The notes beneath the pieces are model-generated. The model saw only the letters and a program-made list of their open reading frames with translations. It did no database searches and was not told where the DNA came from. Shown here piece after piece: positions 20,484 through 58,115 of a stretch of 59,778 bases of DNA (its first letter is position 1; each line of letters begins with the position of its first letter). The DNA is from a virus: IMG/VR virus record IMGVR_UViG_3300044624_002493, positions 1 through 59,778 of that record; one strand, written 5' to 3'. Made by a program: the position numbers and the translations under genes.

Positions 20484-20503
20484 AAAATTCTGTCCTTATA
20501 CCA

Positions 20504-20509
20504 TATTTA
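20504..20509 (-). promoter_or_regulatory. CTAAATA late-type promoter
   Basis: CTAAATATGG on the minus strand about 20 nt upstream of the Ig-like virion gene start. Same box as at the other virion genes. Confidence 0.5.
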
Positions 20510-20541
20510 GTAGAAATTAAGCAAGTAACTTATTGCCAATT

Positions 20542-22215: not shown

Positions 22216-22216
22216 G

Positions 22217-24751
22217 TTATAGTTCAGTTTGCAGTATGGTCAATTCAACCGTGATAGCCACAGTGTTTCCACTGTTGTTGGTAATGGCCACTGGAATATT
22301 AGTGTTGGGCGGTGTTTCATCGTTGTAACAAACCACGCCTGGGCTCATCAATATGGTTTGATTACCTGTGGTAATTACTTCAGCTAGTACACCAGCACCC
22401 GGGTTTGGATCATTGCCTTGAGTACGACTTGCGTCGGCAGTTCTTGCTGCATCACTGGTATAAATTCTAACCCAAGCAGAATCTGTGGTGGATATTTTGT
22501 ATAAATTATATCCTTTGTATCCAATAATTGTTGCGTTAGCGGTAGCTGCATTGCCTAAACTACCAGTACTTACATTAGCTGTAGTTCTGCTAGTTGCGCC
22601 AACACCAGTGGCTCCAGTTGGGCCAGTGGCTCCAGTTGGTCCGCCACTAGGACCAGTCGCACCAGTGAATCCAGTTGAGCCAACACCACCTGCTCCTGTT
22701 GCGCCGGTTGGGCCGGTAGGGCCAGTTGCGCCAACACCGCCAGGACCGGTTGCTCCGGTTGCTCCTATAGGACCGCCACTTGGACCAGTTGCTCCCTGTG
22801 GGCCAGTTGCTCCAGTTGTGCCTGCGCCAGTTGCGCCTGTGGTACCTGTTCCAGTTGCTCCTGTGATACCAGTTGCTCCCTGTGGGCCAGTTGCTCCAGT
22901 TGTGCCTGCGCCAGTTGCGCCTGTGGTACCTGTTCCAGTTGCTCCTGTGATACCAGTTGCTCCCTGTGGGCCAGTTGCTCCCTGTGGGCCAGTTGCTCCA
23001 ATACCACCACTACCACCGGATATACCGGTTAAGAAAGCACCGTTACCTACAAAGTAATTTCCAGTAACATTACCAATGGCAGAAACATTTTGAGCAAAAG
23101 AAATATTGCTGGTAAAGTTAATGTTTCCAGCTACGTTTGGACTATTGTAAAAAGTAACATTGTTTGAATAAAGATTAAAACTAAATCCAGGACCACTACC
23201 TATGGTCACATAGCTACTGGTTATGTCAATATCAGATGATCCACCACCGGCTAGATATATTCCATTTGACTGATTTAGTATGTTTAATTTTTGACCACTT
23301 TGACCAGAGATGTAACTGCCAACTTGAACTCCGGGTACTGTGGTACTGCTAGAATTTAAATTAACTGCACCAGTGACTGATAAATTTGCAGTGGATATAT
23401 TAGCAGTATTACTGATGCTGTAACCTTGACCATTGATGTTACCAGTCATGTCTCCGTTTAGTACACCAGTGCCAGTTGCACCTTGCAGGCCAGTTGCTCC
23501 TACAGGACCGCCACTTGGTCCAGTTGCACCGGTAGGGCCAGTTGCGCCTACGCCAGTTGCGCCTGCGGTGCCAGTAGCACCAGTGAGACCAGTTGCTCCT
23601 GTAATACCAGTTGCACCGGCAGGGCCAGTTGCGCCTACGCCAGTTGCTCCAGTTGTACCTGCGCCAGTTGCGCCTGCGGTGCCAGTAGCACCAGTGAGAC
23701 CAGTAGTACCAGTAAGTCCAGTTGCACCATTAGCACCATTGGCGCCATTGACCCCGGATACTCCGTCAAGTCCAGCTGGCCCAGTTGCACCAGTTAATCC
23801 TGTAGATCCATTAGTACCTGCTGTGCCAGTTGCACCAGTTAACCCTGTTGTGCCTGTTGCACCTTGAAGGCCGGTTGTGCCAGTGGCGCCAGTAAGACCT
23901 GTTGCTCCAGTGGCACCTGCGCCTCCTGCAACAACCACGCCAGTTAAAAATGCACCATTGCCTAAGAAGTAATCGCCAGATACATTTCCAGTGGTAGTAA
24001 TATCACCAGCAATAGCAGTATTGGCTGTGACCACTTCTTGTCCATCAACCTGAAGTCCGCCAGTAGAACCTTCATTGATAACCACGTTGCCAAGATAAAT
24101 TGAACTGTTGCTGAGGTACAGATCTTTCCAGAAATTATCCACGTTACCTAGACTGTAGATAGCGTTTCCGTAAGGAATAAGATTGGCCACAATGCCACCT
24201 TCGGCATAGGCAACAACATTGGCATTGCTATAAGCAGCCGGAATTCCAGCCATGGTAGATGCATTACCAAAGAAATAAGCACCTGTGATGTTGCCACTGG
24301 AATTAACTATTCCGGTAGTTATTAAATTTCCTGCGTTTACATTCCCGGTGGCAGAAACCGATCCGCTTACACGTATACCTTGATCTGTGAAAGTGGCTAC
24401 GTTGGCAGTGCCAGCCACAGTGACCAGCACATTACCGCCCGACGATGGGATAGTTACATTTGTTGTGCCAAAGTTGATACTAGGAGTAGTGATGTTGGCA
24501 ATTTGAGTAACCTGGGCCCAGATCACACTGCTTCCGTCATAGTTAGCAAAACAATAGTAAAAATAGGTACTGTCAAAGGCATACATGCCGGCCACGTCAC
24601 CAATGCTGCCTACCAAAGTCGGTGGCGGTGATGATTGTGCTCGTGCGTATAATTCGCTAAAATTGCTGTTAGTTTTTTGAAAACTAGTGCGTATAGGATC
24701 GCCTTGCCCGTCGTTGGGTGAAGTGCCTACGTTGATTATTTGTTGTGCCAT
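22217..24751 (-). CDS. collagen-like tail fibre protein, 844 aa
   Basis: The N-terminus ([20 protein letters not shown], then [10 protein letters not shown]) is the attachment motif shared with the other fibre proteins here. Two Gly-X-Y blocks (about residues 280-430 and 580-730), with units such as [10 protein letters not shown] and [13 protein letters not shown], flank a non-collagen domain containing repeated [18 protein letters not shown]. Near 22.80-23.00 kb the second block contains a DNA-level tandem repeat with small breaks in the Gly register. GAGGAC precedes the ATG. Confidence 0.88.
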
Positions 24752-36180: not shown

Positions 36181-36291
36181 CTCTATAAGTCTACAATTCT
36201 TAATTGATTTTATCTATGGACCTACAAATATATTTTTATGGAACCACCAACACCGGTAAGTACATGGCAAGGCAACTCAAGTAAGGCAACC

Positions 36292-37965
36292 ATGAACAGC
36301 AGATACGACGAACTAGAAATCTTAATCTCTAAATTTACCAGAACACTACCACAACAGACCGAATACGCACAACGGCTAGAAGAAGAATTAGAAATTATAG
36401 CAAATCTCAACTTTGCACGACATTTCTTGCGTGTGCGTGAAATTCTTGATCTCACTCGCGACATACCACACATAACCCGCGGCTCAGCAGGATCATCATT
36501 GATTTGTTGGCTTATGGGCATAAGTGATGTTGATCCCATAGCAGAACGTATACCACTCAGCAGATTTATGAATCCCAAACGTGATGACTTGCCCGACATA
36601 GATCTAGACTTTCCACACTGGCAACAGATCACAGTGATGAACAGGATATTTAGACGTTGGCCTGGACAAAGTGCTAGAGTTTCAAACTATGTGATGTACA
36701 AGGAAAAATCAGCCCGACGTGAAGCGGCTAAACGCATGGGTGCCAAGGGCACACTGAAACGCAACTTTACTTTTGAAGATGTGGTGCCCGACTATGTGGA
36801 TGAAGCTGAACGCATCACACAAAAGCTCATGGGCAAGAAACGCTGTATATCAAAACACTGCGGTGGCATACTAATCTTTGACCGAGCTGTGCCCAAGAGC
36901 TTGATTAACGGCAATAATCAGATACTCCTGGACAAGCACGAAGTGGAAGATCTGGAACATTTCAAAATTGATATCCTGGCCAATCGTGGACTCAGCCAGT
37001 TGTGGGACATAGAACAGCGTGATTTGCTAGATTATCCTGAATATGACGAAGCCACAGCTGATCTCCTGTGCCGTGGAGATGTGTTGGGTGTTACCCAGGC
37101 CGAAAGCCCGGCCATGAAACGCCTGGTACGGGCTATACGTCCACGTACCCGTAGTGACTGTGTGTTGGCAACTGCCTTGATACGGCCGGTGGCTACCATG
37201 GGCCGACGCCGTGCATCAGCGTTTCAGGATTGGAGCACAGATCAATTACAAGACACCATAGTGTTCGAAGATGATGCCATACATTTGATATCGGAAATCC
37301 TGGGTTGTGATCAATACACCGCAGACATGTGGCGCAGAGCTTTTGCCAAAAAAAACGAAGAAAAAATATTTGAATTCATGGTGCTGGTTGGTGATCATCC
37401 CAAGAAAGATGAAATATTCCTGGCTCTGCGAGAACTCAGTCACTTTGGCTTGTGCCGTGCTCATGCTATCAATCTGGGCAGGCTGATCTGGGCCTTGGCC
37501 TATCAGAAAGCACACAATCCACAGCGATTCTGGGAAGCAGCCTTGCGCCACTGTCAAGGATCCTATTCACAGTGGGTCTACTGGCAAGAAGCCAAGTTGG
37601 CCGGCGCTGTTCCAGCCATCTCCGAAGGTGGTGAAGTGGCCGAACTGCGTGCCATGGGTCGATGGAGCAGCCATAGATTCATTCCGGCTTGCCAGGAACG
37701 TCGTGGTCCTGGCACTGTGGAGTTTTGTGGGCTAGTGGCCAACTATAGGGTGTTCAAGGCCGACCGCAAAAAATACATAACTTTTGTGACCTTAGGCACC
37801 GGTAACGGTCGTTACCTGGATGTAATCGTGCCGCACGCCATATCTTTCCATGATCAACCAATTCTTTGGGGTCAGGGCAAATTGGGGTACAAAAACAATT
37901 CAGAATATGTTACAGTATATAAACATAAAAAATTAGATCTCAAGGACATAGAACACTACCAATGA
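36292..37965 (+). CDS. PHP-less DNA polymerase III alpha (DnaE)-like catalytic core, 557 aa
   Basis: Alignment by eye to bacterial DnaE: YAQRLEEELEIIANLNFARH (helix before the palm), TRGSAGSSLICWLMGISDVDP (62-82) for GRGSAAGSLVAY, FMNPKRDDLPDIDLDF with the catalytic pair D102/D104, SKHCGGILI for the KHAGG motif, and HFKIDILANRGL with the third Asp D227. Fingers-like regions follow. The PHP exonuclease domain (about 280 residues before this point) and the C-terminal OB and tau-binding parts are absent, so the protein is half normal length. Start 36292 has AAGG 6 nt upstream; an earlier ATG at 36238 adds 18 unmatched residues. A 22-codon ORF (36216-36284) ends just before it. Confidence 0.82.
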   Translation: MNSRYDELEILISKFTRTLPQQTEYAQRLEEELEIIANLNFARHFLRVREILDLTRDIPHITRGSAGSSLICWLMGISDVDPIAERIPLSRFMNPKRDDLPDIDLDFPHWQQITVMNRIFRRWPGQSARVSNYVMYKEKSARREAAKRMGAKGTLKRNFTFEDVVPDYVDEAERITQKLMGKKRCISKHCGGILIFDRAVPKSLINGNNQILLDKHEVEDLEHFKIDILANRGLSQLWDIEQRDLLDYPEYDEATADLLCRGDVLGVTQAESPAMKRLVRAIRPRTRSDCVLATALIRPVATMGRRRASAFQDWSTDQLQDTIVFEDDAIHLISEILGCDQYTADMWRRAFAKKNEEKIFEFMVLVGDHPKKDEIFLALRELSHFGLCRAHAINLGRLIWALAYQKAHNPQRFWEAALRHCQGSYSQWVYWQEAKLAGAVPAISEGGEVAELRAMGRWSSHRFIPACQERRGPGTVEFCGLVANYRVFKADRKKYITFVTLGTGNGRYLDVIVPHAISFHDQPILWGQGKLGYKNNSEYVTVYKHKKLDLKDIEHYQ

Positions 37966-38276
37966 AACCCACCGGAAGATTACACATTTATCCGCCCACT
38001 GGCCCCCGCGGCACTGGCTACGTTGTGGCAGATCGACAGGCCCTGCGAGGCCTAGCACAGGCAGCACAGACGGCAAGTGCTGGCAATTTTGGATTTGAAA
38101 CTATAAAATTATACAGTGCCGACGGTCATGAATATGAACTAGTGCTTACTAGTGCGGTGGGCGAAGAAGAATGGCAGACCATAGAAAGCCACTACGCCAA
38201 AGAAATAGTACCTACTGTCTGTACCATACAAGATTATCAAGATCTAAAACAAATAGCCAAAGAAAAAGGGCATTAG
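37962..38276 (+). CDS. protein coupled to the DnaE-like gene, 104 aa
   Basis: Function not recognised. LHIYPPTGPRGTGYVVADRQ then FGFETIKLYSADGHEYELVL suggests a small beta-rich fold, and the C-terminal half is helical (QDYQDLKQIAKEKGH). The ATG overlaps the polymerase stop in ATGA, so it is made with the polymerase and may be its partner. The 3' end overlaps the convergent 38273 gene by 4 nt. Confidence 0.7.
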   Translation: MKPTGRLHIYPPTGPRGTGYVVADRQALRGLAQAAQTASAGNFGFETIKLYSADGHEYELVLTSAVGEEEWQTIESHYAKEIVPTVCTIQDYQDLKQIAKEKGH

Positions 38277-38847: not shown

Positions 38848-39909
38848 TTACTCTTTTTTGCCAATATATTCGTGACTATAGCAAACACGGTTTGCATCTC
38901 TTAGAGCAATTTGAGCATTTCCACCGTAGCCGGGCATGGCCCTGATCGTGCCGTCTTTGAGTAGATAACTACCTTTTCGACTTTTCTTGTTAGTACTAGT
39001 GGCTCGCCACAATGGTGATTTTTCTCTGTGTTCACCAAAACTAGGATGGGCAGTTTTGCTAAAGTATCGCATGCCCTTGCTGACATACATTTCAGCAATG
39101 GCGTCACTGAACCGTGTACCTATACCCATGCCTTGAAACTCTGGGAGTATAACAGTTCTATGCCCGCGCCAGTACGAATGAATATCTCTATTGGTAGAAT
39201 GTATTGCGGCATGAAATGCAATAGGTTTGTCACCAAGCAAGCCCACATAGCAATGAACACTACGACTCATGCGGGTATCTAGATAGTGATACTTAGAAAA
39301 GTATCGCCACATTTCTGGACTTGTGCCGCGGATGGTGAGTGTAAGTTCTGGTCTGGTCCCCAGTCGAAAGGGTGACCTCCGATTATCTAATACCTGTAGG
39401 TCGGTATCGTACACCCATTCTGGATCTAACCAGTCAATGATATCTCTGTGGCAACTGGCAATGTATAACGGCTCAGTGGTGCCACGTTGATCATAATACT
39501 TACGCACACTATATGCAAGACTTTTGGCAGTGTCTCGGTCTACTACACTGGTAAATTCATCTATCTTGTTGATTCCTTGATCCAAACACATGGCCATTTC
39601 AAAGCGGTGATGCTCACCATTGCTTAAGGTATGTGGTGGCCGGAACCAAGTTGGGATACTACGCAAACCACAGGCCAATAGTAACTCTTCCCCACGCTCA
39701 GGAGTAGAGAAGTTTTCAATAACTGAGTTATAAAATTCAATTTTGGGTTGACCGTGCTCGCCTAGACCACGCAAGATAGTGCTTTTACCACTGCCGCTTG
39801 TACCAACAATCAATACAATACCATCTTGGGGAAGCTCGGGTATTACTACCTTGGCCTCCTTGTAGTCAGCAATGTCGTATTTTCGTTTAATTTCTTCTAG
39901 GTAACTCAT
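38848..39909 (-). CDS. ABC-type ATPase fused to a GNAT acetyltransferase-like domain, 353 aa
   Basis: N-terminal ABC ATPase: Walker A VGTSGSGKST (35-44), signature-like TLSNGEHHRFEMA (94-106) and Walker B INKIDEFTSVVD (113-124), with a later SCHR switch His. No membrane domain, so it is not a transporter. The C-terminal half (about 190-340) is GNAT-like: FSKYHYLDTR, a VGLLGDKPIAFHAAI strand pair and LPEFQGMGIGTRFSDAIAE, which is the Q/RxxGxG/A acetyl-CoA loop. The fusion suggests ATP-driven delivery of an acyl-transfer or base-modifying domain to a nucleic acid or protein. Coupled to the gene upstream by ATGA. Confidence 0.82.
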   Translation of the reverse strand: MSYLEEIKRKYDIADYKEAKVVIPELPQDGIVLIVGTSGSGKSTILRGLGEHGQPKIEFYNSVIENFSTPERGEELLLACGLRSIPTWFRPPHTLSNGEHHRFEMAMCLDQGINKIDEFTSVVDRDTAKSLAYSVRKYYDQRGTTEPLYIASCHRDIIDWLDPEWVYDTDLQVLDNRRSPFRLGTRPELTLTIRGTSPEMWRYFSKYHYLDTRMSRSVHCYVGLLGDKPIAFHAAIHSTNRDIHSYWRGHRTVILPEFQGMGIGTRFSDAIAEMYVSKGMRYFSKTAHPSFGEHREKSPLWRATSTNKKSRKGSYLLKDGTIRAMPGYGGNAQIALRDANRVCYSHEYIGKKE

Positions 39910-40463
39910 ACAACTCCAAAAAAGTCAAAGTGCTTGTCTAACGTCCATTCATGTGGATTTTTAATTTCTTGTCCATTGTATGTAGTAAACTTAGCATCGT
40001 CAAACATTTCGTATCTATCAAAGAAATGCCAATAATCAGGGCTACTGCTTACATGCCCTTCTTCACGTAATATATCATCATTGCGGTTACTAATCAAACA
40101 GGTAGGAGTATTTAGAGCTTGTGGCACTGTAAGAACCCCCTGCAATAACATGTCACGTACTTTGGCTGCCGGAATTACATGTTCAAATATGCAATTACTT
40201 TTATCTACGCCAACCTGAATATAATGACTGCCTATGCTACCTTCAATTGCATAGCCATGATATCGTCGTACCCAATGATCCATGCTGTCGCGCAATAATC
40301 TAGCAGTCTGACCGGCTGTAGTTAACTGCTTGTACATACCCACCAACCGGTCTAACTCACTCACAGTTAGTTCATAGGTTTCATTGTAAGACGTTTCACC
40401 ACGTTGTACACGACTATAACTTACAGGTTGAAAGCTCTCAACTAGTTCTTTGGTAATAGGCAT
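39906..40463 (-). CDS. protein of the ABC-GNAT operon, 185 aa
   Basis: Not recognised with confidence. The central CIFEHVIPAAKVRDMLLQG and LISNRNDDIL recall small nuclease-type folds (Cys then Glu-His), but a full HNH motif is not visible. The start overlaps the upstream stop (TAATG) and the end overlaps the ABC-GNAT start (ATGA), so the three genes are a translational unit. Confidence 0.7.
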   Translation of the reverse strand: MPITKELVESFQPVSYSRVQRGETSYNETYELTVSELDRLVGMYKQLTTAGQTARLLRDSMDHWVRRYHGYAIEGSIGSHYIQVGVDKSNCIFEHVIPAAKVRDMLLQGVLTVPQALNTPTCLISNRNDDILREEGHVSSSPDYWHFFDRYEMFDDAKFTTYNGQEIKNPHEWTLDKHFDFFGVV

Positions 40464-40831
40464 TATACTAGTCCTTTCAAGGCAGGTTTAACGCTATCAC
40501 ACACATTATTACGCCCGTCACCATCGGGCAAAATACCCAGTCCGTGTCCTTTGGTGGGTAGGGTTAATTTGCCGCCGTGTAACTTATACATCTCACGCAT
40601 AAACTTGCTCATACCATCTGGAGCAGACCAGTTACCTACTGCAAAAGCCCATTGATCTTTGGCCATTTTATGCACCACATGACTATCGTTAAATGTTCGA
40701 GCCACTCCATCACGCAGGACTTCAATCATCCAATCCTTGGGCTGATTTACTGTGAGTTCGGTATTAAGACTTGCCATCTGCATAAGCCCAATGAACACGC
40801 CTTGGTCGATTTCATCTTGATTAGGAAACAC
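40463..40831 (-). CDS. protein of the ABC-GNAT operon, 122 aa
   Basis: Function not recognised. Helical N-terminus (IDQGVFIGLMQMASLNTELT) and a Gly-rich end (LTLPTKGHGLGILPDGDGRN). The best start visible is GTG at 40831 without a ribosome site; the frame stays open for a further 16 codons upstream (LNNILKAIRT), so the protein may be longer. Confidence 0.6.
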   Translation of the reverse strand: MFPNQDEIDQGVFIGLMQMASLNTELTVNQPKDWMIEVLRDGVARTFNDSHVVHKMAKDQWAFAVGNWSAPDGMSKFMREMYKLHGGKLTLPTKGHGLGILPDGDGRNNVCDSVKPALKGLV

Positions 40832-40856
40832 TGTGCGAATTGCTTTGAGAATGTTG

Positions 40857-41537
40857 TTAAGCGTTTTGCCCGACGGGGTCTTGTTTCATACATTTGATAG
40901 AACTGTCAAAGTGGCTATACCAATAAAAATTTGGCCCACACTTGCCTGGGCTTTCTCGATGACTTTTTTCTTGCAAATCAACTTCATTGGCATCAAATTG
41001 ATCTTGCAGTTTGCGAGCTGTTAATACTTCCCTGTCTTCACTGCCTTTGGTAAACAAGTGCAAACGAATACGATGTAGGTCTGGTTTGCCAATTTTTTTA
41101 ATACCAGAGTCATTAAGAATTTCAAATGCTTCGCTGGCAAAACGATCGTTGTCGGTTTCAACATAACAAGCAGGCACCTCAGTATAACCCAGGATCCACA
41201 TGGCCAGCATGCGATGTTGACCATCATAGGCATAGTAACGACTTGGGAATTTGCTCTTGGGCAGTCTTACGCAACTTGCAGCACCAACAATTCTTGGATC
41301 AAATTTACGAATAATATTAAGAACGTGTTTAACAATTACGTCACGTTGAACTTCGTAATCAATCCAAATTGAATCAAAATTTAATAGTGCAAGTCCGATT
41401 GGAAATCCGTATCCGGTAGATTTAATACGAGTTTGAATACGAGCAAGTTCTTTGTCTGTGAAACCGTGATTCTCTCTGAGATCTGCAAGAGTTTCTTTGG
41501 CAACATCTGACAAGAGGCGCGATAATCGCTTAGTCAT
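40857..41537 (-). CDS. DGQHR/ParB-like domain protein, 226 aa
   Basis: Residues 60-125 read IDYEVQRDVIVKHVLNIIRK, then RYYAYDGQHRMLAMWILGYT. The YDGQHR motif (104-109) with a preceding basic beta-strand is the mark of DGQHR/ParB-type nuclease or regulator domains, which bind DNA or nucleotides and occur next to DNA-modification genes (DndB for example). The C-terminus is helical and basic. It is the first gene of the operon that ends with the ABC-GNAT fusion; a perfectly spaced sigma70 promoter and AAGGAC lie upstream. Confidence 0.75.
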   Translation of the reverse strand: MTKRLSRLLSDVAKETLADLRENHGFTDKELARIQTRIKSTGYGFPIGLALLNFDSIWIDYEVQRDVIVKHVLNIIRKFDPRIVGAASCVRLPKSKFPSRYYAYDGQHRMLAMWILGYTEVPACYVETDNDRFASEAFEILNDSGIKKIGKPDLHRIRLHLFTKGSEDREVLTARKLQDQFDANEVDLQEKSHRESPGKCGPNFYWYSHFDSSIKCMKQDPVGQNA

Positions 41538-41581
41538 AATAGTCCTTAGGTAAAATGGTTAAATTTTATACTGCAAACTAT

Positions 41582-41610
41582 ATTATAAAAGAAAACAACT
41601 TTTTGGTCAA
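41582..41610 (-). promoter_or_regulatory. sigma70 promoter (TTGACC-17-TATAAT)
   Basis: TTGACC (41610-41605), 17-nt spacer, TATAAT (41587-41582) on the minus strand, 44 nt before the DGQHR gene. It marks the start of the DGQHR/ABC-GNAT operon. Confidence 0.78.
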
Positions 41611-41611
41611 C

Positions 41612-42148
41612 CTACTTTAACAAGTCTAAAAGTTCTTGATACGTAAGGGTTTTTATTAGAAATCTGTCCAAATGTGTTTGCAGAGTTTGGTGAGTAATGT
41701 GGAATTGTCCTTCTCCAACATTGCCTTTGTGTTGTTTATCACCGTAACCAATGGACGAATCAATCTCTGCGGGCAGTATGGTAAAGATCTTGACCACGTC
41801 ATCAAAGAACATACCGTAATACAATTGATCAAATTCTGCACGTTTGACCTGCTGTATGTTGCAAGCAAATTGATTGGTTGCCCATTGACCGAATGCCACT
41901 CGACGATCTGATGCAATTTCACGTGATAGGATTTCTAAAATTTTATCTTCGTTTAGCTTTTCCAATGATCGTTGCACTGTGCTAAACTTGACTTCAATTC
42001 GTTGACCGGTGGGTGTGTTCCAAAGATCATGGTGACGACTGCGAGGCTTATCAAACTGATAAAGTCGTTTGATCATAATCTCGGCTAGTCTTCCTAACCG
42101 GCGAGTGTTGATTGTAAAAATTATATCACGTAATTGTTCTGGAGTCAT
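41612..42148 (-). CDS. PD-(D/E)XK nuclease-like protein (restriction-endonuclease fold), 178 aa
   Basis: GRLAEIMIKRLY (E23) followed by HHDLWNTPTGQRIEVKFSTV supplies the D41...E52-x-K54 catalytic signature of PD-(D/E)XK nucleases; size and position fit a small restriction-type enzyme. No methyltransferase lies beside it, so it may act on unmodified host DNA, with phage DNA protected by another modification. It ends just before the promoter of the DGQHR operon. Confidence 0.72.
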   Translation of the reverse strand: MTPEQLRDIIFTINTRRLGRLAEIMIKRLYQFDKPRSRHHDLWNTPTGQRIEVKFSTVQRSLEKLNEDKILEILSREIASDRRVAFGQWATNQFACNIQQVKRAEFDQLYYGMFFDDVVKIFTILPAEIDSSIGYGDKQHKGNVGEGQFHITHQTLQTHLDRFLIKTLTYQELLDLLK

Positions 42149-42371: not shown

Positions 42372-42707
42372 CTACACAATAACCGACTGACCAACTTCAA
42401 GTCGGTTACTATAAAAACATTCACCACGACTACGAATTAAGTCTGCAAATCCTTGCGGATCACGCCTGAACATATCTTGAATGTTCTCTTCGGTTATGCC
42501 TTCCTCTACTGCAAAATAATAGATCTCATAGTGCCGTTGAGTATTAAATTGTGCTCGTAGCCTTAAATGGAACGGATTAGCGTAAGCGTGTCTAGGACTA
42601 TCTCGTCCTTGCAACTTTTCCCACATAACCCGTTGATCATCAGCAGTAATGTCGGCCACATATTCTAAACCTTCGTTGCACCACATGACAATAAACGTAT
42701 GATCCAT
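42372..42707 (-). CDS. conserved-looking phage protein, 111 aa
   Basis: Function not recognised. HTFIVMWCNEGLEYVADITA then LRLRAQFNTQRHYEIYYFAV suggests a small alpha/beta domain. Coupled to the upstream 63-aa gene by TAATG. Confidence 0.75.
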   Translation of the reverse strand: MDHTFIVMWCNEGLEYVADITADDQRVMWEKLQGRDSPRHAYANPFHLRLRAQFNTQRHYEIYYFAVEEGITEENIQDMFRRDPQGFADLIRSRGECFYSNRLEVGQSVIV

Positions 42708-42898
42708 TACTGTAATACATTGCCTTCGATGCCGTCGAACACACTACATCCACGAGCTTCTGCTTCCTCCATCAATTTGGCTGTACTAGCATCGCAAGCA
42801 ATTTCAAACAACTCATCAATCTCATCTTGGGTCAAGTAGTATTCTGGAATCTGTCCTGCTAATACTGCTTCAGCTACCATTAAACGATCCTCGGTCAT
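42707..42898 (-). CDS. small acidic protein, 63 aa
   Basis: Function not recognised. Acidic and helical (TEDRLMVAEAVLAGQIPEYY, then DEIDELFEIACDASTAKLME). AGGAG ribosome site inside the 3' end of the heme oxygenase gene, with a 29-nt overlap. Confidence 0.7.
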   Translation of the reverse strand: MTEDRLMVAEAVLAGQIPEYYLTQDEIDELFEIACDASTAKLMEEAEARGCSVFDGIEGNVLQ

Positions 42899-43433
42899 TG
42901 AGTTTCTCCTGTAGTTCGTTAAAAAATTCTATGGCCAAATCAAATGCCACTAATGCTTCATCTACAATGTCTGTGGACAGTTTGGCGTCCAGGGCTTTGA
43001 TCAACGCCGGACGATCTTCAAATCCGTAGCACTTGCCACTACCCGGTACTTTCTTGGCAATAATTTTGCCACCGTACATATCGCCCATGTGCCTGACATA
43101 TACATGTGCAAGAATTTGACTTTTGTCAGTGTAGTACAGATGTACAATGCGTTCACACCACTTTTTAATACTGGGTAGGGGTTCTTCGGTGACATTATAC
43201 CCCAATTCTTTAAGATCTTCACGCATGTAATCAGCACGTTTGATATCCGGTAAATCGTGTAACAGGTGACTGATTTCGGCAAAATATTCAATGTTGCGAT
43301 ATACCAATTCCATCTGTTGTAAAAACACAGCATAGTCATCTGCGGTTATATTACCATGTAACATGTACTGAACAAAGGGCGTGGCTTCGGCGGCTCTGTG
43401 TTTTTCGTTGGTGTAGTTGCGTAAGATGCTCAT
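42870..43433 (-). CDS. heme oxygenase (HO-1 family), 187 aa
   Basis: Proximal His12 in NEKHRAAEATPFVQYML and the distal glycine helix YVRHMGDMYGGKIIAKKVPG (112-131) are both present, with LEEL/DLKELG-type helices between, as in biliverdin-forming heme oxygenases. It cleaves heme to biliverdin, iron and CO using reduced ferredoxin. Cyanophage relatives feed bilin synthesis; no bilin reductase is visible here, so iron release or heme removal is an alternative role. Start 43433 is the ATG in an ATGA overlap; an earlier in-frame start lies in the upstream gene. Confidence 0.88.
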   Translation of the reverse strand: MSILRNYTNEKHRAAEATPFVQYMLHGNITADDYAVFLQQMELVYRNIEYFAEISHLLHDLPDIKRADYMREDLKELGYNVTEEPLPSIKKWCERIVHLYYTDKSQILAHVYVRHMGDMYGGKIIAKKVPGSGKCYGFEDRPALIKALDAKLSTDIVDEALVAFDLAIEFFNELQEKLNDRGSFNGS

Positions 43434-43594
43434 TCCTGTTCTACCGCCCAAAATCTAAAATCAAAGCTGTCTTGCAAACAGGTAAATTCATCACCTGTGG
43501 TATTTTTGTATCGCACCCAGGCCTTGTGATCCACAATATAGCGTTCTATCACATAGAAAAAACGTGAGTGCCCGTCGGTATAAACTATAGCCAT
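43430..43594 (-). CDS. small protein upstream of heme oxygenase, 54 aa
   Basis: Function not recognised. MAIVYTDGHSRFFYVIERYI begins a small beta-rich domain, ending FDFRFWAVEQE. Start 43594 is fixed by the TAATG overlap with the upstream stop; the stop overlaps the heme oxygenase ATG. Confidence 0.7.
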   Translation of the reverse strand: MAIVYTDGHSRFFYVIERYIVDHKAWVRYKNTTGDEFTCLQDSFDFRFWAVEQE

Positions 43595-44004: not shown

Positions 44005-44241
44005 CTAAGACCATTTCATAACAAACGCCAGATAATCTCGTTCGTCATCAAAATAAAATATATAACGCCCAGGTTTTTGGTCACTGCTGACTTCTACCAA
44101 TTGCCAGCGCCATTCATCAACCAATTCACTTTTACACCAGTCAAGCACATGTTCTACTTCGCCAAATCGTTTGGTAATTTCCTGTGCGTGATTAAAACTA
44201 GCACGATCACGATGCCATTCTACAGGACTTTTTAGGAGCAT
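44005..44241 (-). CDS. hypothetical protein, 78 aa
   Basis: Function not recognised. MLLKSPVEWHRDRASFNHAQ, then a Trp-rich middle (VLDWCKSELVDEWRWQLVEV) and YFDDERDYLAFVMKWS. It shares with the 73-aa protein at 44618 the theme of a C-terminal DxxDALxFxxxxS-like end. Start 44241 overlaps the upstream stop by 10 nt. Confidence 0.7.
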   Translation of the reverse strand: MLLKSPVEWHRDRASFNHAQEITKRFGEVEHVLDWCKSELVDEWRWQLVEVSSDQKPGRYIFYFDDERDYLAFVMKWS

Positions 44242-44624
44242 AGTTCCATGGGTTGGTTGATACCCCAAAATTGGTAACTTTCTTGTATGTCTTGGACATA
44301 GCCCAAACTCGGTCGGCCGCTTTTGGGATCAGTCATTTCATAAAAGAAAAACTGTACGCCATCTTGAATCCATGTGCGTTTTGTGTAGTAACTGGGATAA
44401 CCCTCAAACGCATCCAATGCCATCTCACAATCGGGAGTAATTTCCCACAACACTCCACCCACGCTTGTGCCAGTCTGGGGTTCGATGGTAGCATGACTGT
44501 ATAACTTTAGTTGCCAGTCTCTGAGAACAAATGTACCTTTGGCCAAGGCTTGAGGACAACGCCAGCTCATGTTTTCTGGATGCATGTTTGCGCCATAAGC
44601 AAAATAAAGTTGTCGTTCTAACAT
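44232..44624 (-). CDS. gamma-glutamylcyclotransferase-like protein (GGCT/AIG2 fold), 130 aa
   Basis: LYFAYGANMHPENMSWRCPQ is the nucleotide-free substrate loop YGxN of the GGCT fold; TSVGGVLWEI and LDAFEGYPSYYTKR, with the catalytic Glu in EGYP, complete the pattern. Enzymes of this fold release 5-oxoproline from gamma-glutamyl compounds such as glutathione derivatives. A role in thiol metabolism or in breaking an isopeptide bond is possible; the substrate is not known. Confidence 0.82.
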   Translation of the reverse strand: MLERQLYFAYGANMHPENMSWRCPQALAKGTFVLRDWQLKLYSHATIEPQTGTSVGGVLWEITPDCEMALDAFEGYPSYYTKRTWIQDGVQFFFYEMTDPKSGRPSLGYVQDIQESYQFWGINQPMELCS

Positions 44625-50850: not shown

Positions 50851-53800
50851 ATGACTGTTTATACAACTACTGCCACTGGTACTGATAGTACCGGTAACAT
50901 ACTCATAGTAAGTTCAACTGCCAACATGGCAATCGGTTTGCCAATATCGTTTTCAGGCACTGTTTTTGGCGGAATTGTTGCGGGGGATACCTATTACATT
51001 CTTAGCATTGTAAGTGGAACTCAAATTACTCTGAGCGGAACTGCCGGAGGAGCCGTGGTAGGATTAACCACTGCCACTGGATCAATGACTGCCACTTTCC
51101 AGAGTGGCGGACAACAAGTCATTGATGTTGGCGCTAGTGCCAATGATGGATCTGGTGAGCCGCTAAGAAACGCATTCACATCAATAAACACCAATTTTGA
51201 CCAGATTTGGGCATCAGGCCCAGTGGGGTCAAACGTGTTTATCGAAGACAATTCGATCAAAACTTTAAACACCAATGGTAATTTGGTGCTGGCACCAAAT
51301 GGTATAGCCAAAGTCGTCAGTAATGTAGATGTAGTGCCAAACAGTGCAAACATCAGAAATCTTGGTAGTAGTAACCTGCGTTGGAACACAGTATATGCAC
51401 AAAATTTAGATGTCACCGGCAGTGTAACCTACGAAAATTTAGCAGTCACAGGCAATGTTTCTGTAGGCGGATTTGTCAGTGTTGCAGGCAATGTCACAGG
51501 CAATTACATTTACGGTAATGGTGCATTTTTAACTGGCATTTCTGGTGGTGGAGGTGGTGGAATTGGAGCAACTGGATTAACAGGTGCAACTGGACAAGCA
51601 GGAGCTACTGGACCTGAAGGTACTCATGGAGCCACAGGTGGCGTTGGAGCTACCGGTACAGCAGGTAGTCAAGGCGTACAAGGCTATGTTGGAGCAACCG
51701 GCGCTACTGGTCTAACTGGAGCAACTGGTCTCAACGGTTTAAATGGATCCACGGGCCCACAGGGTGCCACTGGTGTTGGTGCAACTGGAGCCACAGGTCC
51801 TGCAGGTAGTGCTGGAACAGCAGGAGCTACAGGAGCAAGTGGTATTGAAGGACACCAAGGTGCTACTGGACCCACCGGTGCCACAGGTGCAAGTGGTCCA
51901 CAAGGCTATACAGGCGCAACTGGTACCGTAGGACAAACAGGATCTACAGGACTTACCGGAGCAACAGGTGAAATTGGAGCCACGGGTGTTGCAGGAACAA
52001 ACGGAGCCACCGGAGCAAGTGGTATTGCTGGCACAAATGGCGCAACTGGTGCGAGTGGCGTACAAGGTGACATAGGTGCTACTGGTGCGTCAGGCATACA
52101 AGGAACTGTTGGAGCCACAGGAGCAAGCGGAACAAACGGAGCCACTGGCGCAAGTGGTCCTCAAGGATTAACCGGCGGTACAGGACCAGTTGGACAGACC
52201 GGAGCTACCGGACTTACTGGAGCCACAGGTCAAACAGGTAACACAGGTGACATTGGTGCCACAGGTGCAAGTGGCGTACAGGGATTAACAGGATCCACTG
52301 GCTTTCAAGGAGCTACTGGAGAATTTGGAGCAACTGGTGCAAGTGGCATACAGGGATTAACTGGATCCACAGGTGGAGTTGGTGCCACAGGTGCAAGTGG
52401 GCTACAAGGAGCCACAGGCGTACAAGGCCTTAGTGGAGCAACAGGCGCTACTGGGTTGGCTGGCGCTACTGGTAGTGTTGGAGCCACAGGTGGAGTTGGA
52501 GCAACTGGAACACAAGGAACAATTGGTGCAACAGGTGCAAGTGGTATTCAAGGAACTGCTGGAGATCAAGGTGCCACTGGTGTAACTGGTGATATTGGCG
52601 CAACTGGTGCTACAGGAGTGACTGGTAGTACAGGACCACAAGGTGAAATTGGAGCTACTGGTGCAAGTGGCGTACAGGGATTAACAGGATCCACTGGACA
52701 AACAGGCGCTACAGGTGCCAGTGGCACACAAGGAGCCACAGGTGTACAAGGACTTACTGGCGCAACAGGAGCCACTGGTGTCCAGGGCGAAATAGGCGCC
52801 ACAGGTGCCTCAGGATTAGATGGTGCCACAGGTGCCACTGGTTTAATAGGTGCCACTGGTGTACCCGGTACTTCGGTAGCAATCACCGGATCTGTTGCCA
52901 ACGTAAATGACACCTATCCAGGCGGCGGCCCAAACGATCCAGATGGACTTCTTGATTATTATTTCCCTACTGCCGTTGCCGGTGACGGAGTAGTTGATCA
53001 AAACACTGGAAACTTATGGGTTTATGATGGCGCACAATGGGATGATGTTGGACAAATTGTTGGACCAGACGGTGCAACAGGTCTCACAGGTGCCACAGGC
53101 GTTGGAGCCACAGGCCCACAAGGAGCCACAGGCACAATTGGAGCCACTGGTGCCACGGGTGTACAGGGCGAAATCGGAGCCACTGGTCTTACAGGTGATG
53201 TGGGTGCCACAGGTGCGTCAGGCATACAGGGAACCATAGGTGCCACAGGTGCGTCAGGCATACAGGGAACCATAGGTGCCACTGGTGCTACTGGTGTGCA
53301 GGGACTCGAGGGTGCCACAGGTGTACAGGGCGAAATAGGTGCCACAGGCTTACAAGGCAACATAGGTGCCACTGGTGCGTCAGGCATACAGGGCGAAATT
53401 GGAGCAACTGGTGCGTCAGGTGTACAAGGTGATATTGGAGCCACTGGAGCAAGTGGCCTAACAGGAAGCACAGGACCACAAGGTGAAATTGGTGCCACTG
53501 GCCTACAGGGTGAAATTGGAGCAACTGGTGCAAGTGGCGTACAGGGATTCGATGGCGCAACAGGAGCAAGTGGATTAAATGGTGCTACTGGCCTAACTGG
53601 TAGTACAGGACCACAAGGAACAATTGGTGCCACTGGAGCAAGTGGTGTACAGGGATTAACTGGAGCCACTGGCGTACAAGGATTTGAGGGTGCTACTGGT
53701 GTACAAGGCGATATTGGTTCTACAGGCGTACAGGGATTTGATGGAGCCACTGGACCACAAGGTGAAATTGGAGCCACTGGAGTACAGGGCAATGTAGGTG

Positions 53801-55053
53801 CCACTGGTGCCACTGGATACAATGGTGCAACTGGTGCAACTGGCTTGCCAGGCATTGTTGAATCACCGACTGCACCATCAAACACCGACGTATTATGGTT
53901 GGATACCGGTGCTTCTGGCATAGTAGGTCAAGGAGCAACCGGACTTACTGGAGCAACTGGCGCATTTGGCGGCACACTGACCGGCAATATCAACGGCGCT
54001 GGATACAGCATTAGCAATGTTAATTCTTATACTGGAAATACCGTGTCGGTATCTGGTAACATTACTTCGGGCGACTTCCTAACAAGCGGCCAAATAACAT
54101 CTACCGGAGCAGGTAATACAGCTACCAATGGTGGACAGATTTTCCTAAACGGTGCAACCCTCAATAGAATTGATTGGAATACCAACGGTACTGGAGCTCC
54201 AGAATACACTACAAGAAGTGTAGGAGCCAAAGTTGTGCTTTATCCATCCATAGGTGGCAGTGCCGCCGATTATGCATTGGGCGTTGAAGCAGGTGCATTA
54301 TGGTCAGGTATTCCGGGCAACGACGGAGGACAGTTCTTTAAATGGTACGGAGGAAATATTCCAGTAGCAAGTTTATCAGGCACAGGTGTTTTCTCAGCCA
54401 CAGGCAATGTAACAGGTGGAAATATCTTAACTGGTGGTTTGATCTCAGCCACAGGCAACATCTCAGCTAACAACCTGTCACTCGCTGGCAATGTTACCAG
54501 CAACATTAGCTTTACTGGTGTCGACATTACTATAAACAATGCTCCAGGTGGCAACGAAGGTGCTGAAATTAAGTGGGCTTTACCAGCGGTGGCTAATACA
54601 TCTTTAAGCGGTACTTTAGTACAAGATGTCTACACAAACGGCATGCGGTTCTTTGAATCAGGTGGCAACACTCGTGGCCTATACATGGATCTGGGCAATG
54701 CACCTAATGTATCTACTACAGCAGTGGGCTACAGAGATATTCCGCAGGTCTCATTCACTGCCAACACAACCATTGCCACCACAGACGCTGGTAGACATTA
54801 TTACTCAACCCTGAGCACAGGAAATGTGCTGACCATTGCCAACAACGCAAGCCAAGGTTTCCAAGTTGGTGCCGCTATCTCAATCATCAATCAAGGCTCA
54901 GGCAATATTACTGTGGCACAGGGTTCTGGCGTTACCTTGTATCTTGCTGGCAATGCCACATCGGGCAACAGAAGCGTGGCCACATTTGGTATGGCCACCT
55001 TGATCAAAGTAGCAACAGACACTTGGTTCATCAACGGCACCGGAGTTAGTTAA
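50851..55053 (+). CDS. giant collagen-like tail fibre protein, 1400 aa
   Basis: N-terminal beta domain (1-85), the attachment motif [20 protein letters not shown] then [10 protein letters not shown] (about 90-122), a beta-repeat region, then very long Gly-X-Y blocks (about 230-675 and 730-1005) made of units such as [19 protein letters not shown]. They are interrupted by a non-collagen insert ([30 protein letters not shown]). The C-terminal 390 residues are TGNV-type beta repeats ending in a globular tip ([20 protein letters not shown]). Probably a long trimeric host-binding fibre. TAATG overlap with the LamG-like gene. Confidence 0.9.
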
Positions 55054-55808
55054 TGACCGGCATTATGATGGCCATGGCCAACAACAATGTGACTAGTTCT
55101 GTAAATTACACTGCCCTGGACGGCAGCCTGCAGTTCAACGGCAGTAGTCAATTTCTTTCATTGTCGCCGGGCTTTGCATTAGGTACCAGTGCTTACACCA
55201 TAGAAGGTTGGTTCTACAACAATGCCAACTATACCGCTCAAAGGGCATTGGTTGCCCCACAGCACCCTAGCGGTGCCTCGGGTGCCCTAAGTCTATACAC
55301 CAATGATGCACAATCATTTACCCTGGACGCATATGGTGGTCTTGGTGTTAGGACTTATACTTTTCCCACTAGCACTCTTCAGATCAACAAGTGGCAGTAC
55401 ATCATACTGAACCGCAATTCCAGCACCTCGGTAGAAACCATGTGGGTGGGTACCTTTGTCAATACCAGTTCATTGGTAACTTGCAGTCGTGCTACCAGTT
55501 GCACGGGCGGAACCAGTATCAGCGGTGGCACACAGGTTAACACACTAAATTACTCGGGTGTATGCAACAACATAGGCAAATTTTATGGGGGCTATTGGCC
55601 TGGCTTTATTACCAATTTTCGTGCCACAGTGGGCACAGCAGTTTACAACAGCACCAGTAGTACTGTGACTGCACCTACGGCACCATTGACCAGTTTGGCC
55701 AATACCAAGTATTTGATGCTGGGTGCGGCAGTGACCACCGACACCTCGGGTGTTCAAACTGTCACAAACAACGGCACAGTAACGCAGAGTGCTACCAAGC
55801 CATTCTAA
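55053..55808 (+). CDS. LamG/concanavalin-like domain protein, 251 aa
   Basis: LDGSLQFNGSSQFLSLSPGF, YTIEGWFYNN and LQINKWQYIILNRNSST are the strands of the LamG-type jelly roll (Laminin_G_3 pattern), followed by a GFITNFRATVGTAVYNS segment typical of the family end. Such domains bind carbohydrates. It is coupled to the giant fibre by TAATG, so it is likely a receptor-binding tip or fibre partner. Confidence 0.8.
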   Translation: MTGIMMAMANNNVTSSVNYTALDGSLQFNGSSQFLSLSPGFALGTSAYTIEGWFYNNANYTAQRALVAPQHPSGASGALSLYTNDAQSFTLDAYGGLGVRTYTFPTSTLQINKWQYIILNRNSSTSVETMWVGTFVNTSSLVTCSRATSCTGGTSISGGTQVNTLNYSGVCNNIGKFYGGYWPGFITNFRATVGTAVYNSTSSTVTAPTAPLTSLANTKYLMLGAAVTTDTSGVQTVTNNGTVTQSATKPF

Positions 55809-55810
55809 GA

Positions 55811-55816
55811 TAAATA
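55811..55816 (+). promoter_or_regulatory. TAAATA late-type promoter
   Basis: GATAAATATA on the plus strand between the LamG-like stop and the ATG of the 760-aa fibre gene. Confidence 0.55.
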
Positions 55817-55832
55817 TACAGAGATATTCACA

Positions 55833-58115
55833 ATGAGCCAGTTAAAATACTATAATTCACTTACCTCCGCCTGGGAACCAGCCATAGTTGGGGCCCAAGG
55901 CGCTACTGGAGCGACTGGCCCGCAGGGCAATATAGGCGCTACAGGTGCTAGTGGCATACAGGGATTCGATGGAGCAACCGGACCGCAGGGATTTGATGGC
56001 GCTACGGGTCCAATCGGCGATGCTGGCGCAACAGGCCCGCAGGGATTTGATGGCGCAACAGGACCACAAGGCGATGCTGGCGCAACAGGCCCACAAGGCC
56101 AAATTGGTTCTACGGGTGCAAGTGGTGTACAAGGACTTACAGGCGCTACTGGACAATTTGGTGCCACAGGATCACAAGGATTTGAAGGCAGTACTGGTCC
56201 ACAGGGATTCACAGGATCAACTGGACCCATTGGTATCACAGGAGCCACAGGACTTACTGGAGCCACAGGCGGACAAGGCGTACAAGGATACGATGGTTCC
56301 ACAGGAGCCACAGGCCCACAGGGCTCCACTGGTGTTGGTTTACAAGGCTCCACCGGTGCTCAAGGTGCCACTGGACTTGCCGGGCAAGATGGTGGCAGTA
56401 GTACCTACTATAATTATGCAGCGTTAACTACTGCTACGTCAGGTGACCCCGGTAATGGTAATATTCTGTGGAACACTGCTATACAGACCAATGCTTCCCA
56501 ACTTAACATTGACCATTTAACCACAACCAATGTGGACATTGATGTATTTTTAGCCTTGTTAAAAATCAATGATTCGTTGATCGTACAAGATTCTACAAGC
56601 AGTACCAACTATCAGCGTTGGACTATCAATGGCACACCAACTTCGCCTGGAGACAACCTTTATTGGACAGTGCCGGTGTCCTTACAGAGCAGTGCTGGAA
56701 CAGGAACAACTGGTTTTTCCAATGGTCAAAGCCTATTACTGATTGTTATCAGTACTGGTCAACAAGGTGCCACTGGTTTAGCTGGCGCAACAGGCCTAAC
56801 TGGCGCTACAGGACAATTTGGAGCTACAGGTGCTAGTGGACTAACTGGTGCCACTGGATTTGATGGTGCCACTGGAGCAAGTGGTATTACTGGATTGACT
56901 GGTAGTACTGGTGTGCAAGGATTTGTAGGAGCCACTGGAGCTCAAGGCGATAAAGGTGCCACAGGTGTTGCTGGTGCTACAGGAGCATTTGATGGCAATT
57001 TAACTGCTAATATTGATGGCAACGGCTATAACATTAGCAATGTCAATGTTGTTACTACTAATATTATTGCTAACCCAAAAACTATCACAGCCAATGTACT
57101 GGTGCCAAATGATGTAAATGCACTAGTGATTGGTCCAGTGGTGTTTAGTAATGGTGCTATGGCTATAGTGCCCAGCAGTTCAACGTTTGATGTGTTTGAT
57201 CCAGCTGCGCTGGGTGGCACTATGACTGCCAATATCAACGGTGCTGGTTACAATATTAGTAATGTTTCATTTATATCAGCGACTGGTAATATATCCGGTG
57301 ATTATTTTGTTGGTAATGGTAGTTTATTAACTGGAATAGCGTCGGGCAATGCCAACGCCATTGTCAATGGCAACAGCAATGTGACCATAAACACAGCCAA
57401 CGGCAATGTAACAGTGGCCATAGATGGACAGGGCAATGTGGTAGAAATCGGTCAAGGCAGTTTGAATGTAGCTGGTACTATTAGCAATCCCAAAACCATC
57501 ACAGCCAACGTTTATGTGCCAGACAATGTTAATGCACTCATGATCGGACCTGTGAGTTTTGCCAATGGTGCTATGGCAGTGGTGCCTGCCTCATCCACAT
57601 TTGATGTGTTTGATCCAGCTGCGCTGGGTGGCACTATGACCAGTAATATTGATGGTGCTGGTTACGGTATCAGCAACATAGGAAGTTTGAGCTCAACTGG
57701 CAATATTTCTGGCGTGGGTGCTTTGAACATCGAAGGTGTTTTGAGCAATCCCAAAACCATCACAGCCAATGTTTATGTGCCGGACAGCGTAAATGCACTC
57801 ATGATCGGACCAGTGACATTTGCCAACGGTAGCCAGGCCATAGTGCCAGGAAACAGCACTTTTGACATATTTGATCCAGCTGCCCTGGGCGGCACAATGA
57901 CCAGTAATATTGATGGCGCTGGTTACAACATCAGCAATGTAAGCAATGTCAGCAGCAATTTAAACTTTGTTACCAACGGCATCAGTTTGTTGGCAAACCA
58001 AGTTACAGCAAATGTTACATTCCCTGCAAATTACAATGGAATGAGTGTGGGTCCGCTGACTGTGGCCACAGGAATAGCAGTTAATGTGGGCACAAACAAC
58101 TGGGTAATTTTATAA
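55833..58115 (+). CDS. collagen-like tail fibre protein, 760 aa
   Basis: A Gly-X-Y block begins almost at once (about residues 22-188, [19 protein letters not shown] type), then a non-collagen domain, a second block (about 305-390), and a C-terminal region holding three related units (NPKTITANVLVPNDVNALVI...DVFDPAALGGTMT) of about 95-110 residues. It has no TSF/NSNF attachment motif at the N-terminus, instead MSQLKYYNSLTSAWEPAIVG, suggesting attachment to another fibre. Late box upstream. Confidence 0.88.
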   Translation: MSQLKYYNSLTSAWEPAIVGAQGATGATGPQGNIGATGASGIQGFDGATGPQGFDGATGPIGDAGATGPQGFDGATGPQGDAGATGPQGQIGSTGASGVQGLTGATGQFGATGSQGFEGSTGPQGFTGSTGPIGITGATGLTGATGGQGVQGYDGSTGATGPQGSTGVGLQGSTGAQGATGLAGQDGGSSTYYNYAALTTATSGDPGNGNILWNTAIQTNASQLNIDHLTTTNVDIDVFLALLKINDSLIVQDSTSSTNYQRWTINGTPTSPGDNLYWTVPVSLQSSAGTGTTGFSNGQSLLLIVISTGQQGATGLAGATGLTGATGQFGATGASGLTGATGFDGATGASGITGLTGSTGVQGFVGATGAQGDKGATGVAGATGAFDGNLTANIDGNGYNISNVNVVTTNIIANPKTITANVLVPNDVNALVIGPVVFSNGAMAIVPSSSTFDVFDPAALGGTMTANINGAGYNISNVSFISATGNISGDYFVGNGSLLTGIASGNANAIVNGNSNVTINTANGNVTVAIDGQGNVVEIGQGSLNVAGTISNPKTITANVYVPDNVNALMIGPVSFANGAMAVVPASSTFDVFDPAALGGTMTSNIDGAGYGISNIGSLSSTGNISGVGALNIEGVLSNPKTITANVYVPDSVNALMIGPVTFANGSQAIVPGNSTFDIFDPAALGGTMTSNIDGAGYNISNVSNVSSNLNFVTNGISLLANQVTANVTFPANYNGMSVGPLTVATGIAVNVGTNNWVIL

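What the first reader, a model, noticed from the sequence alone, without database searches (positions are those of the whole stretch)
38848..42148. Candidate DNA-modification or conflict module: PD-(D/E)XK nuclease, DGQHR protein, two unknowns and an ABC-GNAT fusion
Four genes coupled or close to each other (41537 to 38848) share one promoter: a DGQHR/ParB-like protein, two unrecognised proteins (one with Cys...Glu-His) and an ABC ATPase fused to a GNAT-like domain. A restriction-fold nuclease precedes them. DGQHR proteins and GNAT-fold enzymes (Mu Mom as a precedent) are tied to DNA base modification, and ABC ATPases to DNA transactions. The set is a good candidate for a new system that modifies phage DNA or cuts unmodified host DNA.
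Basis: inference. Interest (0 to 1): 0.75.

Follow-up and report, generated by a model that had tools for sequence, protein, structure and literature searches.

The report
Phage DNA-modification and nuclease cassette
A phage related to giant phages carries, at a hotspot where relatives keep swapping such genes, a predicted DNA-base-acylating enzyme (ABC-GNAT) beside two kinds of predicted DNA-cutting proteins; distant relatives of the acylating enzyme sit next to genes that hint at what chemical group it attaches.

Summary
DGQHR (40857-41537) and the first "unknown" (40463-40831) are two halves of one gene: in intact relatives they form one ~351-aa ORF, and the window copy has a +1 frameshift near 40869-40878. 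The 353-aa ABC-GNAT fusion is PHROG 11143. Aravind's group already predicted ABC-GNAT as an uncharacterised DNA-acylation system. It is widespread; 65 of 76 bacterial copies follow a ParB-like gene. The DGQHR protein has a ParB/Srx fold. With the EH-motif protein (39906-40463) it resembles, by motifs and weak profile similarity, the two halves of GmrSD nucleases. The upstream gene is a type-II-REase-like PD-(D/E)XK protein. DNA similarity to relatives breaks at gene borders, so this is a mosaic of exchangeable cassettes at a conflict hotspot. DGQHR+u185 travel together; ABC-GNAT and the nuclease assort separately. Best reading: ABC-GNAT acylates phage DNA while the nucleases attack unmodified or differently modified DNA. 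No activity is shown and joint action is unproven. The most useful new clue lies outside the window: other ABC-GNAT genes are followed by formyltransferases (8 loci) or by aspartate decarboxylase plus CoA-transferase (4 loci).

The parts
38848..39909 (-). ABC ATPase - GNAT fusion, 353 aa; predicted acyl-CoA-dependent DNA-base acyltransferase (PHROG 11143)
   Evidence: Walker A GTSGSGKS, signature LSNGE, Walker B/D-loop IDEFTSVVDR, H-switch CHRD, GNAT loop VxxPEFQGMGIG; mostly invariant or nearly so across 19 homologues.
39906..40463 (-). u185: conserved protein of unknown fold with FEHVIP...N...N motif; possible HNH-like (GmrD-like) subunit
   Evidence: AF2 pLDDT 94; no fold match; weak profile match to GmrSD_C at the EHxxP motif, better than all 150 column shuffles.
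40857..41537 (-). N-terminal 226 aa of the DGQHR (ParB/Srx-fold) protein; ORF cut short by a frameshift
   Evidence: QR and FxxxN motifs invariant, DGQHR nearly so, in 16 homologues.
40463..40831 (-).
   Evidence: one ORF of ~351 aa in L023-L026 and in the other intact relatives.
40869..40878 (-). site of the +1 frameshift (one extra base, in or near a CCCC run) relative to intact relatives
   Evidence: alignment; no second copy of this junction found in viral contigs, so a real mutation and an assembly error cannot be told apart.
41612..42148 (-). 178-aa PD-(D/E)XK nuclease, type II REase-like
   Evidence: REase_II 4e-7; 47% identity to a phage-plasmid protein of B. licheniformis; relatives in three other viral contigs.
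41582..41610 (-). promoter-like TTGACC-17-TATAAT upstream of the DGQHR gene
   Evidence: consensus match only.
42372..42707 (-). u111: gene flanking the hotspot on the upstream side; its homologue lies directly before the nuclease in L026
   Evidence: similar-looking upstream genes directly before the nuclease in L236 and L237.
36238..38276 (+). flank on the other side: DNA polymerase III alpha-like gene and u104, conserved beside ABC-GNAT in L017 and L022 (79-81% DNA identity)

Best explanation
The locus is a mosaic of exchangeable conflict cassettes in a lineage related to jumbo phages. (1) ABC-GNAT: the GNAT half transfers an acyl group from an acyl-CoA to a base of phage DNA, and the ABC half uses ATP to engage or scan the DNA (inferred). 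(2) DGQHR + u185: a two-subunit unit that works like GmrSD, with a ParB/Srx-fold NTP-binding subunit that senses DNA and an EH-N-N, HNH-like subunit that cuts it (inferred). (3) A type-II-like PD-(D/E)XK nuclease. Together they would mark the phage's own DNA and attack host or rival-phage DNA that lacks the mark or carries another. In this copy the DGQHR frame is broken, so the DGQHR-u185 unit may be inactive unless the break is an assembly error. Shown: gene content, folds and motifs, frameshift, gene-border mosaicism and linkage patterns. Inferred: all activities, and the idea that the three cassettes act together.
For: ABC-GNAT family: PHROG 11143; 81 phage records, including Tenacibaculum phage pT24, which the jumbo-phage review names for the predicted ABC-ATPase/GNAT acyl modification; 354 bacterial-genome stretches. 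A ParB-like gene lies directly upstream in 65 of 76 bacterial copies and 10 of 15 phage records. Acyl-donor partners of distant homologues: Formyl_trans_N just downstream in 8 loci, PanD in 4 and CoA-transferase III in 5. DGQHR: Foldseek KorB/ParB/sulfiredoxin, E 5e-3 to 5e-2, prob up to 1.0. DGQHR and u185 profiles match GmrS and GmrD better than all 150 column shuffles, with unrelated profiles far weaker; motifs as described in PMC4619093. Nuclease: REase_II 4e-7. Hotspot: the only two PF01555 methyltransferase matches in 2.66 Mb of related contigs both lie within about 0.2 kb of module genes; L061 has u185 - REase_II (9.6e-17) - a protein with an SPPY methylase motif. DNA similarity breaks at gene borders.
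Against: Independent assortment: ABC-GNAT occurs without DGQHR or u185, and u185 (with or without DGQHR) occurs without ABC-GNAT even in 320-355-kb contigs, so functional coupling in the window is not established. u185 has no fold match and no GmrSD_C Pfam hit; the hhalign probabilities for the GmrSD relation are only 12-18%. The window copy of DGQHR is disrupted. No acyl-donor gene (PanD, formyltransferase) lies in the window or in nine related contigs. No biochemical data.
Confidence: 0.5

Rival explanations
1. Accessory hotspot without a joint system: ABC-GNAT, DGQHR-u185 and the nuclease are separate cassettes (anti-restriction modification, a stand-alone Type IV-like or homing-type nuclease, a stray REase) that merely share an insertion site.
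For: DNA similarity breaks at gene borders; each unit is found without the others; the nuclease is followed by DGQHR+u185, by a different gene pair or by yet another gene in different contigs; the DGQHR gene is broken here.
Against: u185 and ABC-GNAT overlap in the window and are directly adjacent in many independent contigs; DGQHR or its DAQHT relative is paired with u185 in nearly every locus not cut by a contig end.
Confidence: 0.38
2. ABC-GNAT acylates a protein, tRNA or small molecule (for example a host-takeover target) rather than DNA.
For: Most GNATs acylate proteins or small molecules (own knowledge); a phage GNAT that acetylates host RNA polymerase is known (PMC7824862).
Against: Conserved neighbours across phyla are DNA-handling: ParB-like genes, methyltransferases, and terminase or packaging genes directly downstream in several phages and bacterial loci.
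Confidence: 0.15
3. DGQHR-u185 is not a nuclease but a regulator or specificity pair for the modification enzyme (DndB- or DpdB-like ParB NTPase plus adaptor), swapped to change the target sequence.
For: ParB-family proteins regulate or drive DNA modification in Dnd and Dpd systems (PMC10853773, PMC12839542). u185 sits directly before ABC-GNAT, and in L017 and L022 ABC-GNAT is 79-81% identical where u185 and DGQHR are only 35-44% identical.
Against: DGQHR-u185 is common without ABC-GNAT; u185 keeps the E-H...N pattern expected of an HNH site.
Confidence: 0.25

Closest known systems
ABC-ATPase/GNAT DNA-modification system predicted by Iyer and Aravind (review PMC7824862; example phage pT24), PHROG 11143
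   Same: Same ABC plus GNAT architecture; pT24 locus found at 33.5% identity over 92%.
   Different: Here fused in one chain and preceded by u185 and a large DGQHR protein rather than the ~180-aa ParB-like gene; set in a nuclease/methylase hotspot.
Mom (phage Mu, PF25680) momylation
   Same: GNAT-fold DNA-modifying enzyme; jumbo-phage Mom domains are also tied to REase domains (PMC7824862).
   Different: No detectable profile relation (hhalign prob 0.1; no PF25680 hit); Mom has no ABC ATPase.
GmrSD / BrxU Type IV restriction enzymes (DUF262 + DUF1524)
   Same: ParB/Srx subunit with QR, DGQ(Q/H)R and FxxxN motifs plus a partner with an (E/D)H(x)xP...N...N motif (PMC4619093).
   Different: Two separate genes of about 350 and 185 aa; below Pfam detection for both domains; helical N-terminal half in u185; no fold match to solved structures for u185.
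Type II restriction-modification (PADLOC REase_II)
   Same: The 178-aa nuclease matches REase_II (4e-7); relatives of the hotspot carry methyltransferases.
   Different: No PF01555 methyltransferase in the window; an acyltransferase would take its place.
DndB / DpdB ParB-like proteins with the DGQHR motif
   Same: DGQHR pentapeptide and ParB/Srx fold.
   Different: No Dnd or Dpd modification genes were recognised beside it; no NCBIfam hit for the window half and no relevant Pfam hit for the intact protein.

Membership tests
ABC-GNAT predicted DNA-modification family (PHROG 11143) | ABC ATPase with all NTP-binding motifs joined or coupled to a GNAT domain with an intact CoA loop | tested here: met
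   invariant G36 S38 G39 G41 K42, S96 G98, D117 E118, H154, and R251 V253 P256 G260 G262 of the CoA loop.
ABC-GNAT predicted DNA-modification family (PHROG 11143) | Linkage to a ParB-like gene | tested here: inconclusive
   ParB-like gene upstream in 65/76 bacterial and 10/15 phage-record copies, 0/36 in the jumbo group; the window has a DGQHR protein of ParB/Srx fold instead.
ABC-GNAT predicted DNA-modification family (PHROG 11143) | Acylates a DNA base | not testable with these tools
   Needs nucleoside mass spectrometry.
Mom (PF25680) | Sequence or profile similarity to Mu Mom | tested here: not met
   hhalign prob 0.1, E 0.66; Pfam lists no PF25680 hit.
GmrSD | ParB/Srx-fold subunit with QR, DGQ(Q/H)R and FxxxN motifs | tested here: met
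   A2 invariant Q64 R65, D105 Q107 H108 R109, F138 N142; fold; hhalign to GmrS E 0.0024, 0/150 shuffles as good.
GmrSD | HNH subunit with (I/L/V)(E/D)H(I/L/V)xPQ and L(G/A)NLxLLxxxN motifs | tested here: inconclusive
   u185 has FEH(V/I/M/L)IP(A/Q) and ALNxPTCxISxxN; hhalign E 0.0013, prob 18%, 0/150 shuffles as good, aligned over the first motif only; no PF07510 hit.
GmrSD | Pfam GmrSD_N / GmrSD_C match | tested here: not met
   Neither reported for A1 or A2 members.
GmrSD | Cleaves modified DNA | not testable with these tools
   Needs purified protein.
Type II R-M | Restriction endonuclease with PD-(D/E)XK site | tested here: met
   REase_II 4e-7; conserved D41, E52-V-K54; no solved-structure match, so the fold itself is inferred.
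Type II R-M | Cognate methyltransferase next to the nuclease | tested here: not met
   No PF01555 in the window; present at this hotspot in G007 (weak) and G015, not in the window. Other methylase families were not searched.
Dnd / Dpd systems | DndC-E or DpdA/C modification genes nearby | not tested
   No dedicated search; none recognised among the neighbours scanned.

The most novel reading that the evidence does not exclude
The ABC-GNAT family writes an undescribed aminoacyl-type DNA base. Some members carry their own donor pathway (aspartate decarboxylase plus CoA-transferase giving a beta-alanyl-CoA-like donor) and others a formyltransferase that caps the group. In the jumbo lineage the same writer is paired with interchangeable nuclease modules, including a split GmrSD-like DGQHR+u185 pair, as an R-M-like weapon against host or rival-phage DNA.
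Probability: 0.25. Interest if true: 0.85.

Novelty: new variant of a known kind. Interest (0 to 1): 0.58.

Why it matters
ABC-GNAT genes are common in phages and prophages across many phyla, yet I found no report of the modification they make. The recurring PanD + CoA-transferase and formyltransferase neighbours give a concrete, testable guess about the group they add. A phage hotspot that keeps one DNA-acylating enzyme while exchanging its nuclease partners would be a clear case of phage-borne, modular R-M-like weaponry.

Tried and rejected
(a) Treating 40463-40831 as a gene of its own: rejected, it is the C-terminal half of DGQHR. (b) Filing ABC-GNAT under Mom: rejected. (c) Equating u185 with the ~180-aa ParB-like gene that precedes ABC-GNAT elsewhere: rejected, u185 has no ParB motif and the jumbo group gives no hit to the ParB-like profile. 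(d) Fold search for u185 in PDB and BFVD: no match. (e) A sister copy of the window phage to judge the frameshift: none found. (f) Donor-pathway genes in the window or in related jumbo contigs: none. (g) Reports of ABC-GNAT chemistry: only the prediction in PMC7824862 was found in the held library; the 2013 source paper is not held, so I cannot say whether the PanD, CoA-transferase and formyltransferase links were reported before.
Full report
What is in the window. The window is a 59,778-base viral record from IMG/VR, classed as a possible fragment. u185 and ABC-GNAT overlap by 4 bases.

The gene count changes. In relatives fetched from viral contigs, DGQHR and the 122-aa ORF match two halves of one ORF of about 351 aa (L023-L026 and the other intact relatives). 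A DNA alignment shows one extra base in the window at about 40869-40878, in or near a CCCC run. After it the DGQHR frame stops, and the 122-aa ORF continues the same protein in another frame. No other copy of this junction was found, so a real mutation and an assembly error cannot be separated. There are therefore three genes plus the nuclease, one of the three being broken in this copy.

ABC-GNAT. It matches PHROG 11143 (3.9e-82, unknown function). Walker A, signature, Walker B/D-loop and H-switch are intact, as is the GNAT CoA loop; most are invariant in 19 homologues. [quoted passage not shown] The window protein finds that pT24 locus, so this part is a member of a known, predicted family. 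It is not a Mom: profile comparison with Mu Mom gives probability 0.1.

Family context. A ParB-like gene lies directly upstream of ABC-GNAT in 65 of 76 bacterial loci and 10 of 15 phage records, often overlapping (PF02195 in Jace, MismyG and LE4). Terminase or packaging genes follow in several phages and bacterial loci. A formyltransferase (PF00551) lies right downstream in eight loci: Komp_PAO1_1, Axumite and Porphyromonas phage011a, plus Stappia, Thiohalomonas, Desulfovibrio, Rhizobium and Opitutaceae contigs. Aspartate decarboxylase (PanD) follows in four loci (Rhodococcus phage Jace, a Thermoanaerobaculia MAG, two Gemmataceae contigs), each with a CoA-transferase family III gene; one further locus (Hyphomicrobium) has the CoA-transferase about 2 kb away without a PanD hit. 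PanD makes beta-alanine and CoA-transferases make acyl-CoAs (established biochemistry), so these neighbours fit an acyl-CoA donor pathway for the GNAT (inference). The loci are the best matches of two scans, not a random sample. None of these genes lies in the window or in nine related contigs, so the donor used by the window enzyme is open.

DGQHR and u185. The intact DGQHR protein (from L026) gives a model with pLDDT 83.5 whose best PDB matches are KorB, ParB and sulfiredoxin (E 5e-3 to 5e-2, probability up to 1.0). Its QR, D-QHR and FxxxN motif residues are invariant in 16 homologues. u185 gives a confident model (pLDDT 94) with no match in PDB or BFVD. Its conserved FEH(V/I/M/L)IP(A/Q)...N...N pattern resembles the GmrD motifs (I/L/V)(E/D)H(I/L/V)xPQ and L(G/A)NLxLLxxxN, and the DGQHR motifs are those described for GmrS (PMC4619093). 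In profile comparisons u185 aligns best to GmrSD_C at the first motif (E 0.0013) and DGQHR to GmrS (E 0.0024); none of 150 column shuffles did as well, and unrelated profiles gave E 0.09 or worse. The hhalign probabilities are only 12-18%, the comparison was chosen after the motif had been noticed, and Pfam's GmrSD models do not fire. I claim that the pair may work like GmrSD, not that it belongs to that family.

The nuclease. The 178-aa protein matches PADLOC REase_II (4e-7). An HD...EVKFS site is conserved in three aligned homologues, one in a Bacillus phage-plasmid. It has relatives in three other viral contigs. Only one of those (L026, same contig as L238) has it beside DGQHR+u185; in L236 it precedes two genes that resemble by inspection the pair before ABC-GNAT in L019, the second of which there has a weak methyltransferase match, and in L237 another gene follows.

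Do the genes travel together? Partly. DGQHR or a related DAQHT protein (profile similarity) is paired with u185 in nearly all loci not cut by a contig end. Of 30 contigs tested, u185 is in 27, DGQHR in 15 and ABC-GNAT in 12, with u185 present and ABC-GNAT absent in three contigs of 320-355 kb; these contigs were fetched with the three proteins as queries, so the counts are not population frequencies. DNA similarity between the window and relatives starts and stops at gene borders: about 38855-39909 for ABC-GNAT and 39912-41537 for DGQHR+u185. The place behaves as a hotspot for modification and nuclease genes: the only two PF01555 methyltransferase matches in ten contigs (2.66 Mb) both lie within about 0.2 kb of module genes (one is weak), and L061 carries u185, a REase_II (9.6e-17) and a protein with an SPPY methylase motif in a row. 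Several other nuclease assignments at the hotspot (L011, L048, L050, L064) rest on motifs read by eye, without a convincing database match.

Verdict. A DNA-modification/conflict reading is reasonable for the parts, but joint action of the three cassettes is unproven and independent cassettes at one hotspot are a close rival. Novelty lies in the DGQHR+u185 pair, the exchange of partners around a conserved ABC-GNAT, and the donor-pathway neighbours of the wider family; whether the last point was noted in the 2013 source paper could not be checked.

Noticed in passing
L006 5960-7071; L218 1508-2576; L183; L225: ABC-GNAT is followed by aspartate 1-decarboxylase and a CoA-transferase family III gene in an actinobacteriophage and in bacterial contigs: a possible donor pathway for the modification.
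   Followed up: partly
L003 6074-6691; L071 1805-2452; L074 5020-5493; L203, L220, L222, L232, L233: A formyltransferase-domain gene follows ABC-GNAT in eight loci of different phyla; in most of them the upstream ParB-like ORF is very short (about 40-75 aa).
   Followed up: partly
window 42870-43451 (-): Heme oxygenase-like gene in the phage (Pfam 2e-16).
   Followed up: no
window 36238-37965 (+): DNA polymerase III alpha-like protein of 575 aa that matches only the NTPase and finger domains.
   Followed up: no
window 44232-44624 (-): Gamma-glutamyl cyclotransferase (AIG2-like) gene.
   Followed up: no
window 15459-24751 (-) and 50851-58115 (+): Several large collagen-repeat tail-fibre proteins, 760-1400 aa.
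   Followed up: no
window 14223-15443 (-): Protein matching phage 'regulator of chromosome condensation' (RCC1-like) families.
   Followed up: no
L013, L015, L020: ORFs before ABC-GNAT that look like halves of a split methyltransferase (GEVFTP-type N-terminal part, Eco57I-like part elsewhere).
   Followed up: partly
L157, L163, L177, L193, L209, L210, L217 (bacterial genomes): In Planctomycetes the ParB - ABC-GNAT pair sits before a terminase-small-subunit-like HTH gene or a terminase (judged by eye), which suggests prophage or packaging loci.
   Followed up: no
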